This document shows positions 53,851 through 59,125 of a DNA stretch of 64,000 nucleotides, in pieces (positions within the stretch are counted from its first letter, which is position 1; each line of letters begins with the position of its first letter). The notes beneath the pieces are model-generated. The model made no database searches, was not told the DNA's origin, and was given only the letters and a program-made list of their open reading frames with translations. This DNA comes from Actinomycetota bacterium (GTDB lineage: Bacteria > Actinomycetota > Actinomycetes > Streptosporangiales > Streptosporangiaceae), in the NCBI GenBank assembly GCA_003168255.1, contig PMSU01000055.1:21185-85184 (forward strand), in the 5' to 3' direction. Both the position numbers and the translations under genes were made by a program.

Positions 53851-53876
53851 CGAACGAGCAGACTCGAAAGGCCGTG

Positions 53877-55484
53877 ATGCTGCCGACCACTTCGGCCGAG
53901 TTCCGGCGGATCAGCCGGGTAGCCCTCGGCGACATCATCCACCGCTCGGCATCCCTGCGCGGCGCCCGGCTAGCGGTCGTCGACGGCGACCACCGGCTCA
54001 CCCATCAGCAGCTGGACGCGCGCAGTTCCCAGTTTGCCCACCACCTGCTGACCGAGCACGACGGCGCTCACGTCGCCACCCTGTGCGCGAACTCCATCGA
54101 CATGCTCGTGGCCATATACGGCATCAACAAGGCCGGCTCGGTGTGGGTGCCCGTCAACATCCAGCTAGCCCCCGCGCAGATCGACTACATCCTGCGGCAT
54201 GCCGAGGTGTCCTATCTCGTCATCGACGAGGACATGCTCGCGCGGCCCGAGATCTCAGACGTGGTGACGAAGCTCGACCTCGCCCTCGTGATCTCCCGCC
54301 CGACGGCAGCCACATCCGGCCGGCTCACGATGGCGGCAGCGACCAGCGGCCGTCCGAGCGAGCTGCCTGACATCGAGATTGCGGGCGATCAGCTCGCCCT
54401 GATCATGTACACCAGCGGCACGACCGGCGACCCCAAGGGCGTCATGCACTCGCATGCGTCCGCCTACAGCGCCATCATCGCCAACATCGCCACGCTCGGG
54501 ATCACCGAGTCTGACGTCATCTCCGCCATGCTCCCGCTGTTCCACTGCGCGCAGCATGTCCTGGCGACATCCGCGCTGGCGGCCGGCGCCGCGATCGTCT
54601 TGACGCGGGGCTTCGCCCCGTCGGCGGCCCTGCACATGATCGGCGGCGACCACGTGACGATCTTCGCCGGACTGCCGATGATGTACGTGGCGATGCTCGA
54701 CCACCCGCAGGCACCAGGCACCGATTTCTCCTCGGTCCGGCTGTGCCTCTATGCCATGGCACCCATGCCCCGGCCGCTGATCGACCGGATCGCGACCACG
54801 ATCGACGCGGACGTCTGGCTCGTCACCGGTCAGACCGAGGCGTACCCGATCACCATGCGCTTCCTGCCGATGCAGCATCCCTCGCTTGAAGCCAACTACT
54901 GGGGCGAGTCCACGGTCGTCTGCGAGACCGGGATCATGGATGACCAGGGCAGGCTGCTGCCGCCCGGCGAAATCGGCGAGATCGTCCATCGGGGCCCTAA
55001 CATCATGCTGGGCTACTTCAAGGACCCGCAGGCCACGGCGGCGGCTCAGGCCTACGGGTGGCACCACACCGGCGACCTCGGCACGATCAACGCCGACGGT
55101 CAGCTGCTGTTCCTGGACCGCAAGAAGGACATGATCAAGACAGGTGGCGAAAACGTCCCGAGCGTGAAGGTCGAATCCGTGCTCCTGGCGCATCCGGCGA
55201 TCACGGACGCCGCCGTGATCGGGGTGCCGCATCCGCACTGGAGCGAGGCCATCGTCGCTGTCGTCGTTCGCAGCCCCGGGCAGGAATGCTCGGTCGAGGA
55301 CATCCTGCGCCACTGCCGACGGTATCTCGGCGTTTTCGAGGTGCCGAAGGACGTCGTCTTCGTGCAGAGCCTGCCGCACACCGCGACGGGCAAGGTTCTC
55401 AAGACGGTCCTGCGCGGCACCTACGATTCGCACTTCGCCCGACACCCGAGCCCAGGCCAGGCAACCCCAGTCAGCGGCCAGTAA
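53877..55484 (+). CDS. AMP-forming acyl-CoA synthetase (second paralogue)
   Basis: A 535-aa ANL ligase: P-loop MYTSGTTGDPKGVMHSH, A5 TGQTEAYPI, A7 HHTGDLGTI, A8 DRKKDMIKTGGENVPS, catalytic Lys in PHTATGKVLKT. It is clearly paralogous to the 39023 enzyme. ATG 53877 follows GAAAGG. It lies between the SDR and the oxygenase-methyltransferase-acyltransferase trio, so it may provide the acyl-CoA used by the acyltransferase (inference). Confidence 0.93.
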   Translation: MLPTTSAEFRRISRVALGDIIHRSASLRGARLAVVDGDHRLTHQQLDARSSQFAHHLLTEHDGAHVATLCANSIDMLVAIYGINKAGSVWVPVNIQLAPAQIDYILRHAEVSYLVIDEDMLARPEISDVVTKLDLALVISRPTAATSGRLTMAAATSGRPSELPDIEIAGDQLALIMYTSGTTGDPKGVMHSHASAYSAIIANIATLGITESDVISAMLPLFHCAQHVLATSALAAGAAIVLTRGFAPSAALHMIGGDHVTIFAGLPMMYVAMLDHPQAPGTDFSSVRLCLYAMAPMPRPLIDRIATTIDADVWLVTGQTEAYPITMRFLPMQHPSLEANYWGESTVVCETGIMDDQGRLLPPGEIGEIVHRGPNIMLGYFKDPQATAAAQAYGWHHTGDLGTINADGQLLFLDRKKDMIKTGGENVPSVKVESVLLAHPAITDAAVIGVPHPHWSEAIVAVVVRSPGQECSVEDILRHCRRYLGVFEVPKDVVFVQSLPHTATGKVLKTVLRGTYDSHFARHPSPGQATPVSGQ

Positions 55485-55554
55485 GAACCGCGGCGGCCTC
55501 GCGCTCAAGCCCCTGAGACGGCCCTACGTCAGCAGCGTCCTGGCGGACCCCGGC

Positions 55555-55567
55555 TAGATTGGACCTT
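55555..55567 (+). promoter_or_regulatory. Leaderless-type -10 (TAGATT) before the oxygenase gene
   Basis: TAGATT ends 7 nt before ATG 55568 and there is no Shine-Dalgarno sequence. The TANNNT-N7-ATG layout is the actinobacterial leaderless pattern seen at ten other genes in this window. It suggests the trio has its own transcript. Confidence 0.5.
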
Positions 55568-56437
55568 ATGGGCGCATCTGGAACTCGGGTAGTCGACCGG
55601 ATTGTCAACGAAGCGAGCTATCGGCTGTCCGAGCCGGAGAGCGCGGCGTGGCAGCATGTCGTCGCCCGCACCCAGAGCGAGCTCTTAACGCTCGGCTGTA
55701 GCGTGCTTCCCGGCTTCGTCTACCCGGAGGCCTGTCACGCGCTGCGCTCGCAATGCGCTGCGATCGCCCCGCTGGCGTATTTCGACGTCGAAACCGTGAA
55801 CGCCTACAACACCGCCCCCGACTCGTCCCTGCCAGAAGATCATCCTGGTCGCATCACCATGGAGCGCGGCAACGCCTTCGTGCCCCGCGATCGCATTCCG
55901 GCGGACTTCGTCATCCACCAGCTGTACTCCAGCGAGCTGTTCCAGCAGTTCGTCGCGAGCTGCTTCGAGCTGCCCCGGCTCTGCGAACTGGCCGACCCGC
56001 TGGCCGGCCTGTGCCTCAACGTCGTCCGCCCTGGCATGGAGCACCCGTGGCATTTCGACACCAACGAGTTCACTGTGAGCATGGTCACCCAGCAGCCGCA
56101 GGCCGGCGGGGTCTTCGAGTACTGCCCGAACATCAGGTCCGCTCGTGATGAAAACTTCGACGACGTCCGGGACGTGCTGGCTGGCCACGGCGAACACCTG
56201 ATCCGTCGTCTCCCGCTTCGCCCTGGCGACCTTCAGCTGTTCAGGGGGCGGTATTCGGTGCATCGGGTGAGCTGCGTGCGAGGCGATACGGACCGGCACT
56301 CGGCGATCTTCGCCTACAGCGAGCGCCCCGGAGTGGTCGGTACCGTGGCGCGGACGAGGCAGCTCTTCGGCCGGGTGCTGCCGGAGCATCTCGCTGCGCA
56401 GGGACGCTCCGTGCGATCCGACCAGCTACTGGACTGA
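55568..56437 (+). CDS. 2-oxoglutarate/Fe(II)-dependent oxygenase, BesD/HalD-like with intact HxD
   Basis: A 289-aa cupin-fold oxygenase. The facial triad is His162-Phe-Asp164 (PWHFDTNEF) and His232 (YSVHRV); Arg243 (DRHSAIFAY), 11 residues further on, fits the 2-oxoglutarate anchor. The stretch FTVSMVTQQPQAGGVFEYCP resembles the family of free-amino-acid halogenases/hydroxylases (BesD, HalD) as I remember it. Those halogenases have HxG, so the Asp here predicts hydroxylation. One base separates its stop from the methyltransferase GTG. Substrate unknown; a free basic amino acid is my best guess. Confidence 0.82.
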   Translation: MGASGTRVVDRIVNEASYRLSEPESAAWQHVVARTQSELLTLGCSVLPGFVYPEACHALRSQCAAIAPLAYFDVETVNAYNTAPDSSLPEDHPGRITMERGNAFVPRDRIPADFVIHQLYSSELFQQFVASCFELPRLCELADPLAGLCLNVVRPGMEHPWHFDTNEFTVSMVTQQPQAGGVFEYCPNIRSARDENFDDVRDVLAGHGEHLIRRLPLRPGDLQLFRGRYSVHRVSCVRGDTDRHSAIFAYSERPGVVGTVARTRQLFGRVLPEHLAAQGRSVRSDQLLD

Positions 56438-56438
56438 T

Positions 56439-57314
56439 GTGCACCCCGACGAGGAACACGAATCCGTGCAGTACGACGACACCGGCAAGATCTCGTTCGA
56501 CGACATCTACACGCAACCCGACCCGCGCGCCTACTTCGGCACGCTGCGCCGGCTCGGCTACTGCATCCCTCAGCTCGCCAAGCCCTACTTCTTGCGACTC
56601 CTCCAGCACATACGGCCGCAGCAGCAGAGCGATACGAAGATCCTTGACATCGGCTGCTCTTACGGGGTCAACGCGGCGCTGTTGAAGTGCGACCTCACCA
56701 TGGACGAGCTATACCTTCGCTACTGCGGAGCCCCGGCCCGCGCGGAGTCCCGCAGTGCGCTGCTGGCCGGCGACCGGGAGGTCGTCCGTACTCGGAATCG
56801 CCTGCCGTTTACGAAGTTTGTCGGCCTCGACAACTCGCTGCCCGCCCTGTCGTACGCGATGCTGGCCGGCTTCCTAGACGATGCGGTGCACGGTGACCTG
56901 GAGGAGCGCGCCTCGACGGGGCGACAGCGCGAACAGCTTGCCGGGACGGATCTCATTATCTCGACCGGGTGCGTGGGCTACGTCACCGACCGGACGATCG
57001 CACGGGTCCTGGACGCGAATGACGGGCGGCATCCGTGGATGGCGCACTTCGTGCTGCGGATGTTCCCGTTCGACCCGATGATGGAGAGCCTGGCGGGGTT
57101 TGGATACCAGACCGTAGGCTTCGAGCGCGTCTTCAAGCAGCGGCGGTTCGCCTCCCCGCAAGAGCAGGCGCTCGTCCTGGACACGCTGGCGGAGGTGGGA
57201 GTGGATCCCCAAGGCCTGGAGGCCGACGGCTGGCTGTACGCGCAGCTCTACGTGTCCTGGCCGCGCAGCGCCAGCGGCCCCGTCATCGCGGATCTCGCCG
57301 CGGGCAGCCAGTGA
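56439..57314 (+). CDS. Class I SAM-dependent methyltransferase of the trio
   Basis: A 291-aa protein. Motif I is KILDIGCSYGVNAALL, and a second nucleotide-contact strand is FVGLDNSLPALSYAMLAGFL; DLIISTGCVGYVTDRTIARV follows as the motif IV region. The N-terminal ~60 residues (DDIYTQPDPRAYFGTLRRLG) precede the Rossmann core. The start is GTG 56439, the only start at the N-terminus. Its stop shares a base with the acyltransferase ATG, so the two are translationally coupled. Methyl acceptor unknown; N-methylation of the hydroxylated product is inferred from its neighbours. Confidence 0.82.
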   Translation: MHPDEEHESVQYDDTGKISFDDIYTQPDPRAYFGTLRRLGYCIPQLAKPYFLRLLQHIRPQQQSDTKILDIGCSYGVNAALLKCDLTMDELYLRYCGAPARAESRSALLAGDREVVRTRNRLPFTKFVGLDNSLPALSYAMLAGFLDDAVHGDLEERASTGRQREQLAGTDLIISTGCVGYVTDRTIARVLDANDGRHPWMAHFVLRMFPFDPMMESLAGFGYQTVGFERVFKQRRFASPQEQALVLDTLAEVGVDPQGLEADGWLYAQLYVSWPRSASGPVIADLAAGSQ

Positions 57315-59125
57315 TGACCAGTAAGCAAGGGTGGTCCGCCCGCACCTTCGGCAATGAGGACCGGCTGCCGCGGGTACCGTTGCCCGCACTGGAGGAGAGC
57401 TGCAAGCGGTTCATTTCCTGGTGCGCACCGCTGCTAACCTCACGCGAGCTGGCTGCGACCGAGACCGCGGTGAATGCGTTCCTGCGGCCGCATGGCCCTG
57501 GCCGCAAGCTGCACTCCGCGCTCCAGGAGTACGACGCCAGCGATGGCGTGCACAGCTGGCTCGACACGTTCTGGCCTTACCGGTACCTGGGCCGCCGCGA
57601 CCGCATCGCGCTCAATGCCAACTTCTTCTTCTTGTTCGCCGATTCGGGCGAACAGCAGCTGGACCGGGCGGCCGGGCTCATCGCCGCAGCCGTCGACTAC
57701 AAGCTGCGGCTCGACGAGGAGCTTGTCGAGCCGGTCGTCCAGCGCGGGCAGCCCCTCTCGATGGAGCAGAACAAGTTCCTGTTCTCATCGACCCGGATAC
57801 CTGGGCGCGAGCAGGACACGGTCCGCACGCCCTACAGCGCGCAATGGCCCGGCCCGTCCCGAGCCCGCCACATCGTGGTGTTCTTCCGGGGGAACATGTT
57901 CCGCTTGGACGTGCTGGGCGGCGATGGACAGTGCCACAACCTGGACGAGCTCAAGGACGGCCTGCGCGCGATCATGGACGCGGGCGAGGTCGCGGCCGGG
58001 CCAGGCGCGTCCGTCGGGCACCTCACCACCAAGGCGAGGGCGGAGTGGGCGGCTAGCCGGGAGGCGCTGCTGGCCTGCCATCGCGGGAACGCCGCCGCAC
58101 TCGATGACGTGGAGACGGCGCTCTTTTGCGTGTGCCTGGAGGACTTCGCGCCGAAGGACGCGCTGGCGGCGTGCGACCAGCTGCTGCATGGTGACAGCGG
58201 CAACCGGTGGTTCGACAAGTCCGTCTCACTGATCGTCTTCCGGGATGGCACCGCAGGGATCAACGTGGAGCACTGCGGTCTGGACGGGACGACAATCCTC
58301 AGCTTCGTCGACGCGCTGCTCGGCGCACCCGCGCCCGAGCAGTCACCGAATCCGGGGTCCCGGTCTCAGGATCCGGCGGCCGTCAGGCCCGTGACGTTCG
58401 TGCTCGACGATCACCTGCGGGCCGACGTGCAGGCTGCGGCCGCCGCGTTCGCCGCCTACGCGGCCGGCACCGCCACCACGATCGTGTCGTTCGACGACTT
58501 CGGCGCCAACCAGGCCAAGCAGCTGCGGATCTCGCCGGATGCCTTCGTGCAGATGGCCTATCAACTTGCCCACAACCGCGCCAAGGGATTCATCGGCGCC
58601 ACCTACGAGTCGATCGCCACCCGGCAGTACGGGTGGGGGCGCACCGAGGCGATGCGCGTCGTCACGCCCGAGGTGCTGGCGTTCGTGGCAACCATGGACG
58701 ACCCCCTGGTGGATGCGGTCACCCGCAGGACGAGGTTCCGGGTCGCCGCCGCCAAGCACGTCCAGCGGGCGAAGGAGTGCCAGGCGGGTCATGCACCCGA
58801 GCAGCACCTGTGGGAGCTACAGCTGATCCAGCGGCGGCGCGGCGCGGCGCTTGGGGTGTCCGAGCCGGATCTGTACAAGACGCCGGGCTGGCTCAAGATG
58901 CGCGACGACTACCTGAGCACCAGTTCCGCGCCCTCAGCCAACATCGCGTACTTCGGCTTCGGATCGACCAGCAGTCAGTGCATCGGCGTCGCGTACGTGC
59001 TGCTCCCGGACCGCTTCAACCTGTACTTGAGCACGCCACTCGCGGTGGCCGACGAGATGTTCGTGTTCGCCGACAAGCTCCGCGACGCGGTGCGCGAACT
59101 CCAGGATCTGCTGTCGGCGCAGTAG
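57314..59125 (+). CDS. Carnitine/choline O-acyltransferase family protein
   Basis: A 603-aa acyltransferase, the normal length for carnitine acetyltransferases. Catalytic His320 lies in VEHCGLDGTTILSFVDAL. Also present are the GRTEAMR loop, the LSTSSAP motif (Ser535-Thr536-Ser537) and FGFGSTSSQCIGVAYVLLPD as the C-terminal lid. N-terminal LPRVPLPALEESCKRFISWC matches the family's LP.LPVP.L..TL..Y opening. It moves an acyl group between CoA and a hydroxyl next to a quaternary amine. It is coupled to the methyltransferase by a one-base overlap. Such enzymes are mainly eukaryotic but occur in some actinobacteria. Confidence 0.92.
   Translation: MTSKQGWSARTFGNEDRLPRVPLPALEESCKRFISWCAPLLTSRELAATETAVNAFLRPHGPGRKLHSALQEYDASDGVHSWLDTFWPYRYLGRRDRIALNANFFFLFADSGEQQLDRAAGLIAAAVDYKLRLDEELVEPVVQRGQPLSMEQNKFLFSSTRIPGREQDTVRTPYSAQWPGPSRARHIVVFFRGNMFRLDVLGGDGQCHNLDELKDGLRAIMDAGEVAAGPGASVGHLTTKARAEWAASREALLACHRGNAAALDDVETALFCVCLEDFAPKDALAACDQLLHGDSGNRWFDKSVSLIVFRDGTAGINVEHCGLDGTTILSFVDALLGAPAPEQSPNPGSRSQDPAAVRPVTFVLDDHLRADVQAAAAAFAAYAAGTATTIVSFDDFGANQAKQLRISPDAFVQMAYQLAHNRAKGFIGATYESIATRQYGWGRTEAMRVVTPEVLAFVATMDDPLVDAVTRRTRFRVAAAKHVQRAKECQAGHAPEQHLWELQLIQRRRGAALGVSEPDLYKTPGWLKMRDDYLSTSSAPSANIAYFGFGSTSSQCIGVAYVLLPDRFNLYLSTPLAVADEMFVFADKLRDAVRELQDLLSAQ

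What the first reader, a model, noticed from the sequence alone, without database searches (positions are those of the whole stretch)
55568..59125. Coupled trio: 2OG/Fe(II) oxygenase + SAM methyltransferase + carnitine-type O-acyltransferase
Seen: the three genes have a 1-nt gap and a 1-nt overlap and probably their own leaderless promoter. The oxygenase has intact HxD...H plus Arg; the acyltransferase has the catalytic His320 and the STS motif. Known: carnitine acyltransferases act on hydroxyls beside quaternary amines. BesD/HalD-like enzymes modify free amino acids, and those with HxD should hydroxylate rather than halogenate. Inference: hydroxylation of an amino acid, N-methylation and O-acylation would give an acyl-carnitine-like zwitterion or lipid. 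The upstream acyl-CoA ligase could supply the acyl-CoA. I know of no described bacterial pathway with this trio.
Basis: partly seen in the sequence, partly recalled or inferred. Interest (0 to 1): 0.78.

Follow-up and report, generated by a model that had tools for sequence, protein, structure and literature searches.

The report
Three-gene acyl-betaine pathway in actinomycetes
Three neighbouring genes, kept together in the same order in many actinomycetes and found in most sampled members of the Frankia family, encode an iron oxygenase, a likely methyltransferase and a carnitine-type acyltransferase that are predicted to build an unidentified, betaine-like acylated small molecule for which no pathway turned up in the papers searched.

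Summary
The trio is real and is a conserved unit. In 78 of 80 named loci the order is oxygenase, methyltransferase, acyltransferase. In 394 sampled genomes of the class, the same 40 carry a strong oxygenase and a strong acyltransferase. In 14 of 120 listed acyltransferase homologues the last two genes are one protein. No other neighbour is kept across genera; the upstream acyl-CoA ligase has a relative nearby in 2 of 80 loci. The oxygenase is a hydroxylase-type member of the BesD/HalD amino-acid family: iron triad intact, but two acids that bind lysine's ammonium are replaced. The acyltransferase keeps the catalytic His, Tyr and Thr, but the Arg that binds carnitine's carboxylate is Gln in 184 of 184 rows; two free-standing actinobacterial relatives keep Arg. 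It is probably not a carnitine acyltransferase, and a bulky acyl-pocket residue predicts a short acyl group, not a lipid. Best reading: hydroxylate, N-methylate and O-acylate a small amino-acid-like zwitterion. Substrate, methylation site and product are untested. The oxygenase occurs in 30 of 35 Frankia-family genomes. Ten paper searches found no description.

The parts
55568..56437 (+). Fe(II)/2-oxoglutarate oxygenase of the HalD/BesD family, hydroxylase-type HxD...H triad (289 aa)
   Evidence: PF23169 46.5 bits, cut-off 26; Foldseek ranks 1-41 are all BesD-family chains; triad and Arg243 in 198 of 198 rows
56466..57314 (+). class I SAM-dependent methyltransferase-like protein (282 aa from the likelier GTG start at 56466; 291 aa from GTG 56439)
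   Evidence: Pfam only below cut-off; AlphaFold2 model pLDDT 83.8 matches class I methyltransferases; motif DIGCSYG and the Asp of the acidic loop conserved
57314..59125 (+). choline/carnitine-type O-acyltransferase (603 aa), catalytic His320, carnitine-Arg position replaced by Gln497
   Evidence: PF00755 533 bits; CPT2, COT, CrAT and ChAT chains match; residue alignment

Best explanation
The block is a conserved three-gene unit that is predicted to encode a short biosynthetic pathway in which the oxygenase would hydroxylate a small amino-acid-like carboxylate, the methyltransferase would likely N-methylate it, and the acyltransferase would transfer a short acyl group from acyl-CoA onto the new hydroxyl, giving what would be an acylated betaine that resembles acetylcarnitine without being an acylcarnitine. 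Shown by calls: gene order, co-occurrence, methyltransferase-acyltransferase fusion, intact iron, 2OG, SAM and acyl-transfer residues, Gln in place of the carnitine-binding Arg in all rows examined, and no neighbour kept across genera. Inferred: that gene order is reaction order; that the fused pair hands the methylated intermediate directly to acylation; that the acceptor is an amino acid without a lysine-type side chain, or a zwitterion made from it; that the acyl group is short (C2-C4). Because no further gene is kept with the trio across genera, its substrates should be ordinary cell metabolites: an amino acid or derivative, 2-oxoglutarate, O2, S-adenosylmethionine and acetyl-CoA or another short acyl-CoA.
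For: Order kept in 78 of 80 named loci. In a sample of 394 genomes of the class the 40 with a strong oxygenase are exactly the 40 with a strong acyltransferase, and 37 of them hold all three on one contig (lists compared by hand). 14 of 120 listed acyltransferase homologues are full methyltransferase plus full acyltransferase in one chain. Pairwise distances of the three proteins correlate at r 0.86-0.89 over 78 loci, largest of 500 permutations 0.16. No other gene family is shared by more than 24 of 80 loci, and those seen within 5 kb are largely confined to single genera. Oxygenase: BesD-family fold, HxD not HxG; His159 aligns with the BesD His that binds substrate carboxylate, while two amine-binding acids are Leu145 and Thr165. 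Acyltransferase: Tyr431, Thr444, Phe549 kept, Arg to Gln497 in 184 of 184 rows, Phe547 in 166 of 184 where CPT2 has Gly.
Confidence: 0.48

Rival explanations
1. Same three-enzyme assembly line, but the methyl group goes on oxygen or carbon (for example a methyl ester or a branched amino acid), or the acceptor is choline-like without a carboxylate; the product is then an acylated amino alcohol or ester and no betaine.
For: Loss of the carboxylate-binding Arg in all acyltransferase rows examined is also what a carboxylate-free or esterified acceptor would predict; methyltransferase fold matches are mixed in acceptor atom.
Against: Tyr431 and Thr444, which align with two of the three carnitine-carboxylate contacts named in PMC11820905, are in 184 of 184 rows; the quaternary-amine Phe is kept as Phe549.
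Confidence: 0.25
2. Catabolic unit: the oxygenase oxidatively N-demethylates or opens a betaine-like nutrient, and the acyltransferase works in reverse, moving an acyl group from an ester to CoA.
For: Carnitine-type acyl transfer runs in both directions (PMC11852590, section 5). Distant HalD-family paralogues sit beside an arginine-deiminase/DDAH-like hydrolase (L200), an amino-acid-type ABC importer (L201) or a DddP-like protein (L195), i.e. in nitrogen-compound metabolism.
Against: No importer, dehydrogenase or hydrolase was found kept beside the trio across genera; a methyltransferase fused to the acyltransferase points to building, not breaking.
Confidence: 0.14
3. One reading: a long-chain acyl-carnitine-like lipid with the upstream acyl-CoA ligase as the acyl donor.
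For: In the window the ligase (53874-55484) lies directly upstream on the same strand; by sequence CPT2 is the top solved match.
Against: A relative of the ligase (E 1e-15, half the length) lies in 2 of 80 loci, at about 30% identity and 6-7.5 kb downstream; the one acetyl-CoA-synthetase-like gene met beside a methyltransferase-acyltransferase pair (L194) was not caught by that test and is of another type. Phe547 in place of the CPT2 Gly should block a long chain; Arg replaced by Gln argues against carnitine.
Confidence: 0.06

Closest known systems
BesD/HalA/HalB/HalD amino-acid halogenases and the BesD-like lysine hydroxylase (7jsd, 9oet)
   Same: Pfam PF23169, fold, position of iron ligands, the carboxylate-contact His (His159)
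   Different: HxD triad as in the hydroxylase; two acids that bind lysine ammonium (E123, D143 of BesD in PMC13244439) are Leu145 and Thr165; only 14-22% identity to the solved chains in the fold search
Carnitine acetyltransferase, octanoyltransferase, palmitoyltransferase 2
   Same: PF00755 over nearly the full length, catalytic His320, Tyr431, Thr444, Ser-Thr-Ser, Phe549
   Different: the carnitine-carboxylate Arg (R505 of octanoyltransferase by the alignment) is Gln497; Thr two residues after GRT is Ala446; Phe547 in place of Gly of CPT2
Choline acetyltransferase
   Same: same fold family; also lacks the carnitine Arg (recalled: Asn there)
   Different: Gln not Asn; encoded with a hydroxylase and a methyltransferase; by sequence weaker than CPT2, COT and CrAT
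Carnitine biosynthesis (gamma-butyrobetaine hydroxylase plus carnitine acyltransferase)
   Same: logic: hydroxylate a betaine with an Fe/2OG enzyme, then O-acylate it
   Different: the oxygenase matches HalD and no TauD-type profile in Pfam; a methyltransferase is built in; the acyltransferase lacks the carnitine Arg

Membership tests
HalD/BesD family (PF23169) | Profile match above the curated cut-off | tested here: met
   46.5 bits against 26
HalD/BesD family (PF23169) | Family fold | tested here: met
   Foldseek ranks 1-41 are BesD-family chains; model pLDDT 75; under VIA-align PHD2 ties
BesD-type halogenase | Gly or Ala in place of the iron-binding carboxylate (HxG/A) | tested here: not met
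   Asp164 in 198 of 198 rows; criterion from PMC13244439
BesD-type lysine enzyme | Acidic residues at the BesD E123 and D143 positions for the lysine ammonium | tested here: not met
   Leu145 (197 of 198) and Thr165 (194 of 198) by the ungapped stretch of the alignment; the third acid, D239, could not be placed
Choline/carnitine O-acyltransferase superfamily (PF00755) | Full-length profile match and catalytic His | tested here: met
   533 bits over residues 21-575; His320 in 184 of 184 rows
Carnitine acyltransferase proper | Tyr, Thr and Arg that bind the carnitine carboxylate | tested here: not met
   Tyr431 and Thr444 present, Arg replaced by Gln497 in 184 of 184 rows; residue roles from PMC11820905
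Carnitine acyltransferase proper | Activity on L-carnitine | not testable with these tools
   needs an enzyme assay
Class I SAM-dependent methyltransferase | Rossmann-type fold with glycine-rich SAM motif and acidic loop | tested here: met
Amino-acid N-methyltransferase | N-methylation of an amino acid to a betaine | not testable with these tools
   no family profile above cut-off; acceptor atom cannot be read from sequence

The most novel reading that the evidence does not exclude
Actinobacteria, and Frankia almost as a rule, make their own carnitine-like acyl carrier or signal de novo: a short-chain O-acyl ester of a hydroxylated amino-acid betaine, from common metabolites, by a three-enzyme pathway in which a carnitine-acyltransferase fold was re-tooled (Arg to Gln) for a bacterial hydroxy-betaine and in places fused to the methyltransferase that prepares its acceptor.
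Probability: 0.33. Interest if true: 0.82.

Novelty: new variant of a known kind. Interest (0 to 1): 0.66.

Why it matters
Carnitine-type acyltransferases are uncommon in these bacteria: 5 of 396 genomes of the phylum sample, one of them a marginal fragment, and 42 of 394 of the class sample, 30 of them in the Frankia family. A paper seen in passages here states that bacteria cannot make carnitine de novo (PMC9666466). A self-contained pathway that ends in such an enzyme, with a changed acceptor pocket, points to an unknown family of acylated zwitterions. Near-fixed presence in the Frankia family (30 of 35 genomes), known for nitrogen-fixing plant symbionts, makes a role in basic physiology or symbiosis directly testable, and three genes are few enough to express in one host and find the product by mass spectrometry.

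Tried and rejected
Rejected: participation of the window's other neighbours. For the upstream acyl-CoA ligase, SDR and alpha/beta hydrolase and the downstream enoyl-CoA hydratase and second methyltransferase, relatives were found in 2, 1, 0, 0 and 2 of 80 loci (E 1e-15, half the length). The neighbourhood clustering listed components shared by at least 8 loci: the first five are the trio and frames overlapping it; the next (24 of 80 loci, a fifth of its members within 5 kb) looked by eye like ABC ATPases and was not scanned. In one search, three components lie within 1.5-5 kb in 13-16 of 24 Actinomadura loci but in at most one locus of another genus: local synteny, against a strict claim of 'no neighbour at all'.

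Rejected: a conserved leaderless promoter. Inconclusive: neighbours of solo methyltransferase paralogues. Twelve such loci were compared (11 with the methyltransferase recovered by the gene caller); two (L183, L187) share a neighbourhood, four share an ABC ATPase family, and one paralogue (L180) lies beside a glycine-betaine-type ABC system. HalD-family paralogues were read for context only. Pfam, NCBIfam and solved-structure searches did not name the methyltransferase. The search for the Streptomyces palindrome in G580, G646 and G678 gave 0 of 3 and in the window 0 matches.

Not in print: ten paper searches found no description of the trio; some had broad terms and only the top 10-20 rows were listed. 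The library holds open-licence papers only, so subscription papers on BesD-family enzymes are missing and absence is weak.

Counts and dropped rows: the 80 named loci are the best 80 of 508 encoding stretches found with the methyltransferase, so they are chosen for containing it. In one search the 14 fused acyltransferases were left out, and some proteins may be present both as locus and as database row. In one search the 52 loci whose oxygenase match began at profile position 1 were used, of 78. In one search, 77 loci with at least 150 bases upstream were used. In one search a gene split in two pieces entered with its best piece only. In some searches only 6 candidates per genome were scored.

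Papers: PMC13244439 passages (searches gave nothing); PMC11820905 passages; PMC11852590 passages and section 5 part 1; PMC9666466 passages; PMC13255071, PMC10187165 (one search gave nothing) and PMC12348882 passages. All other papers: search listing only. Recalled, from no call: role of CrAT Met564 in acyl length, the Asn of choline acetyltransferase, that R505 of octanoyltransferase is its carnitine Arg, that MmtN is an S-methyltransferase, Frankia as plant symbionts.
Full report
What is there. The window carries, on the + strand, an oxygenase (55568-56437), a methyltransferase-like gene (start GTG 56439 or, likelier, GTG 56466; end 57314) and a carnitine-type acyltransferase (57314-59125). 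The last two overlap by one base. Pfam puts the first in HalD (PF23169, 46.5 bits, cut-off 26) and the third in Carn_acyltransf (PF00755, 533 bits); the second matches methyltransferase profiles only below their cut-offs. NCBIfam names none of the three above cut-off.

The trio is a unit. A scan of species-representative genomes with the methyltransferase found 508 encoding stretches; the best 80 were kept. Of these 80, 78 have oxygenase, methyltransferase and acyltransferase in that order, one (L002) has methyltransferase and acyltransferase, one (L062) the methyltransferase alone. A sample of 394 genomes of the class, not chosen for the trio, gave an acyltransferase in 42 (40 strong, two distant), the methyltransferase in 49 at E 1e-10 and the oxygenase in 45 at E 1e-10 (40 strong). 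The 40 strong oxygenase genomes and the 40 strong acyltransferase genomes are the same 40 (lists compared by hand). Nine further genomes have only a solo methyltransferase relative. In 14 of 120 listed acyltransferase homologues a complete methyltransferase and a complete acyltransferase form one chain of about 900 residues. Distance matrices of the three proteins over 78 loci correlate at 0.86 (oxygenase-methyltransferase), 0.89 (oxygenase-acyltransferase) and 0.86; the largest of 500 permutations is 0.16.

What is not part of it. Apart from the trio and frames overlapping it, no gene family is shared by more than 24 of the 80 loci. Three families lie within 5 kb in 13-16 of 24 Actinomadura loci, but in at most one locus of another genus, which is local synteny. 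The window's upstream acyl-CoA ligase has a relative in 2 of 80 loci, 6-7.5 kb downstream, the downstream enoyl-CoA hydratase in none. The pathway therefore probably runs on general metabolites alone (inference).

Distribution. In the phylum sample 5 of 396 genomes have PF00755, one a marginal fragment. Sample genome G628 has one contig of 7590853 bases and the trio at the coordinates of Frankia sp. QA3 (locus L017), which identifies its family as that of Frankia. In that family 30 of 35 genomes carry the oxygenase, and the same 30 appear in the acyltransferase and methyltransferase lists. The other 10 of the 40 are scattered over other families. Loci with the whole trio include, by record title, Frankia, Protofrankia, Streptomyces, Actinomadura, Micromonospora, Actinokineospora, Herbihabitans and Haloechinothrix; one 7.8-kb contig (L055) is labelled Candidatus Melainabacteria, which may be a binning error.

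Acyltransferase. By sequence CPT2, COT, CrAT and ChAT are the solved relatives, CPT2 first. PMC11820905 (passages) names Tyr431, Arg497 and Thr444 of human carnitine acetyltransferase as carboxylate contacts and Phe545 and Val548 as the pocket of the quaternary nitrogen, and says that the similarity of the site extends to COT, CPT1 and CPT2. By the alignments to COT and CPT2 our protein has Tyr431, Thr444 and Phe549, but Gln497 in place of the Arg, and Thr552 where Val is expected by spacing. Gln497 is in 184 of 184 rows. Two free-standing actinobacterial acyltransferases outside the trio (G139, G667) keep the Arg, so the change goes with the trio. At the position where CPT2 has Gly, Phe547 stands in 166 of 184 rows; a large residue there (Met564 in carnitine acetyltransferase, recalled) limits the acyl chain. 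Carnitine acetyltransferase prefers C2-C4, CPT2 C8-C18 (PMC11852590 section 5). A short acyl group is the prediction; the 18 rows without Phe may differ.

Mechanism proposed. Hydroxylation, N-methylation and O-acylation of a small amino-acid-like molecule, giving an acetylcarnitine-like but distinct ester. Gene order and the fusion of the last two enzymes fit that order of steps. Shown: gene linkage, residues, folds. Inferred: substrate class, methyl position, acyl length, order. Untested: any activity.

Context clues from paralogues. HalD-family genes outside the trio stand beside an arginine-deiminase/DDAH-like hydrolase (L200), an amino-acid-type ABC importer (L201) and a DddP-like protein, below that family's cut-off, with a carbon-nitrogen hydrolase (L195). 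Two others (L203, L204) stand beside a second 2OG oxygenase and near an elongation-factor gene. They are distant and only suggestive.

Regulation. In 15 of 77 loci examined, all Streptomyces by title, an inverted repeat, CAACTNNGTTACTNNTCAGTAGAGTTG or close to it, lies 37-225 bases upstream of the oxygenase. In the five whole genomes that hold five of these loci it occurs once each, and the control pattern not at all. It is absent from the window. A dedicated regulator is possible; no regulator common to the nine loci looked at was seen next door (by eye).

Literature. Ten searches of an open-licence library found neither the trio nor a bacterial acyl-betaine pathway of this make-up. The only bacterial carnitine acetyltransferases met in the passages read were those of sponge-associated chlamydiae, read there as acquired from eukaryotes (PMC9666466).

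Verdict.

Noticed in passing
upstream of the oxygenase in L010, L011, L016, L022, L023, L027, L028, L038, L045, L051, L052, L058, L069, L077, L081: 27-base inverted repeat CAACTNNGTTACTNNTCAGTAGAGTTG (or near) 37-225 bases upstream of the start, found in Streptomyces loci only; exactly one copy in each of five genomes searched. Looks like a trio-specific operator.
   Followed up: partly
G646:C21 (L191) and G678:C9 (L192): Oxygenase and acyltransferase side by side with no methyltransferase between them, while a solo methyltransferase paralogue lies on another contig.
   Followed up: partly
L193 and L194 (one genome, G449): One copy has oxygenase, methyltransferase remnant and acyltransferase; a second contig has methyltransferase and acyltransferase near an acetyl-CoA-synthetase-like gene (ACAS_N). 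A duplicated and partly decayed trio.
   Followed up: partly
L200:4179-5852: A HalD-family oxygenase gene follows, after a 3-base gap, an arginine-deiminase/dimethylargininase-like hydrolase gene, beside an M20 peptidase: possibly a separate guanidino-amino-acid pathway.
   Followed up: no
L195:3195-8435: The closest non-trio oxygenase of the 394-genome sample (E 7e-90) sits with a DddP-like M24 protein (below the family cut-off), a carbon-nitrogen hydrolase and a class III transaminase.
   Followed up: no
L180:8314-13028: Solo methyltransferase paralogue divergent from an ABC system with a glycine-betaine-type binding protein (PF04069).
   Followed up: no
L196:6501-8204 and L197:6454-8241: Free-standing actinobacterial carnitine-type acyltransferases that keep the carnitine Arg; a different bacterial lineage of the family.
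   Followed up: partly
window 55540-55570: The window's oxygenase lacks the GGAGAGGATC-like ribosome site of many relatives and has TAGATT 7 bases before the ATG, as for a leaderless start.
   Followed up: yes
L044:5603-7399 and L081:10001-10894: Acyltransferase (L044) and methyltransferase (L081) match in two pieces in these two contigs, from decay, an insertion or sequencing error.
   Followed up: no
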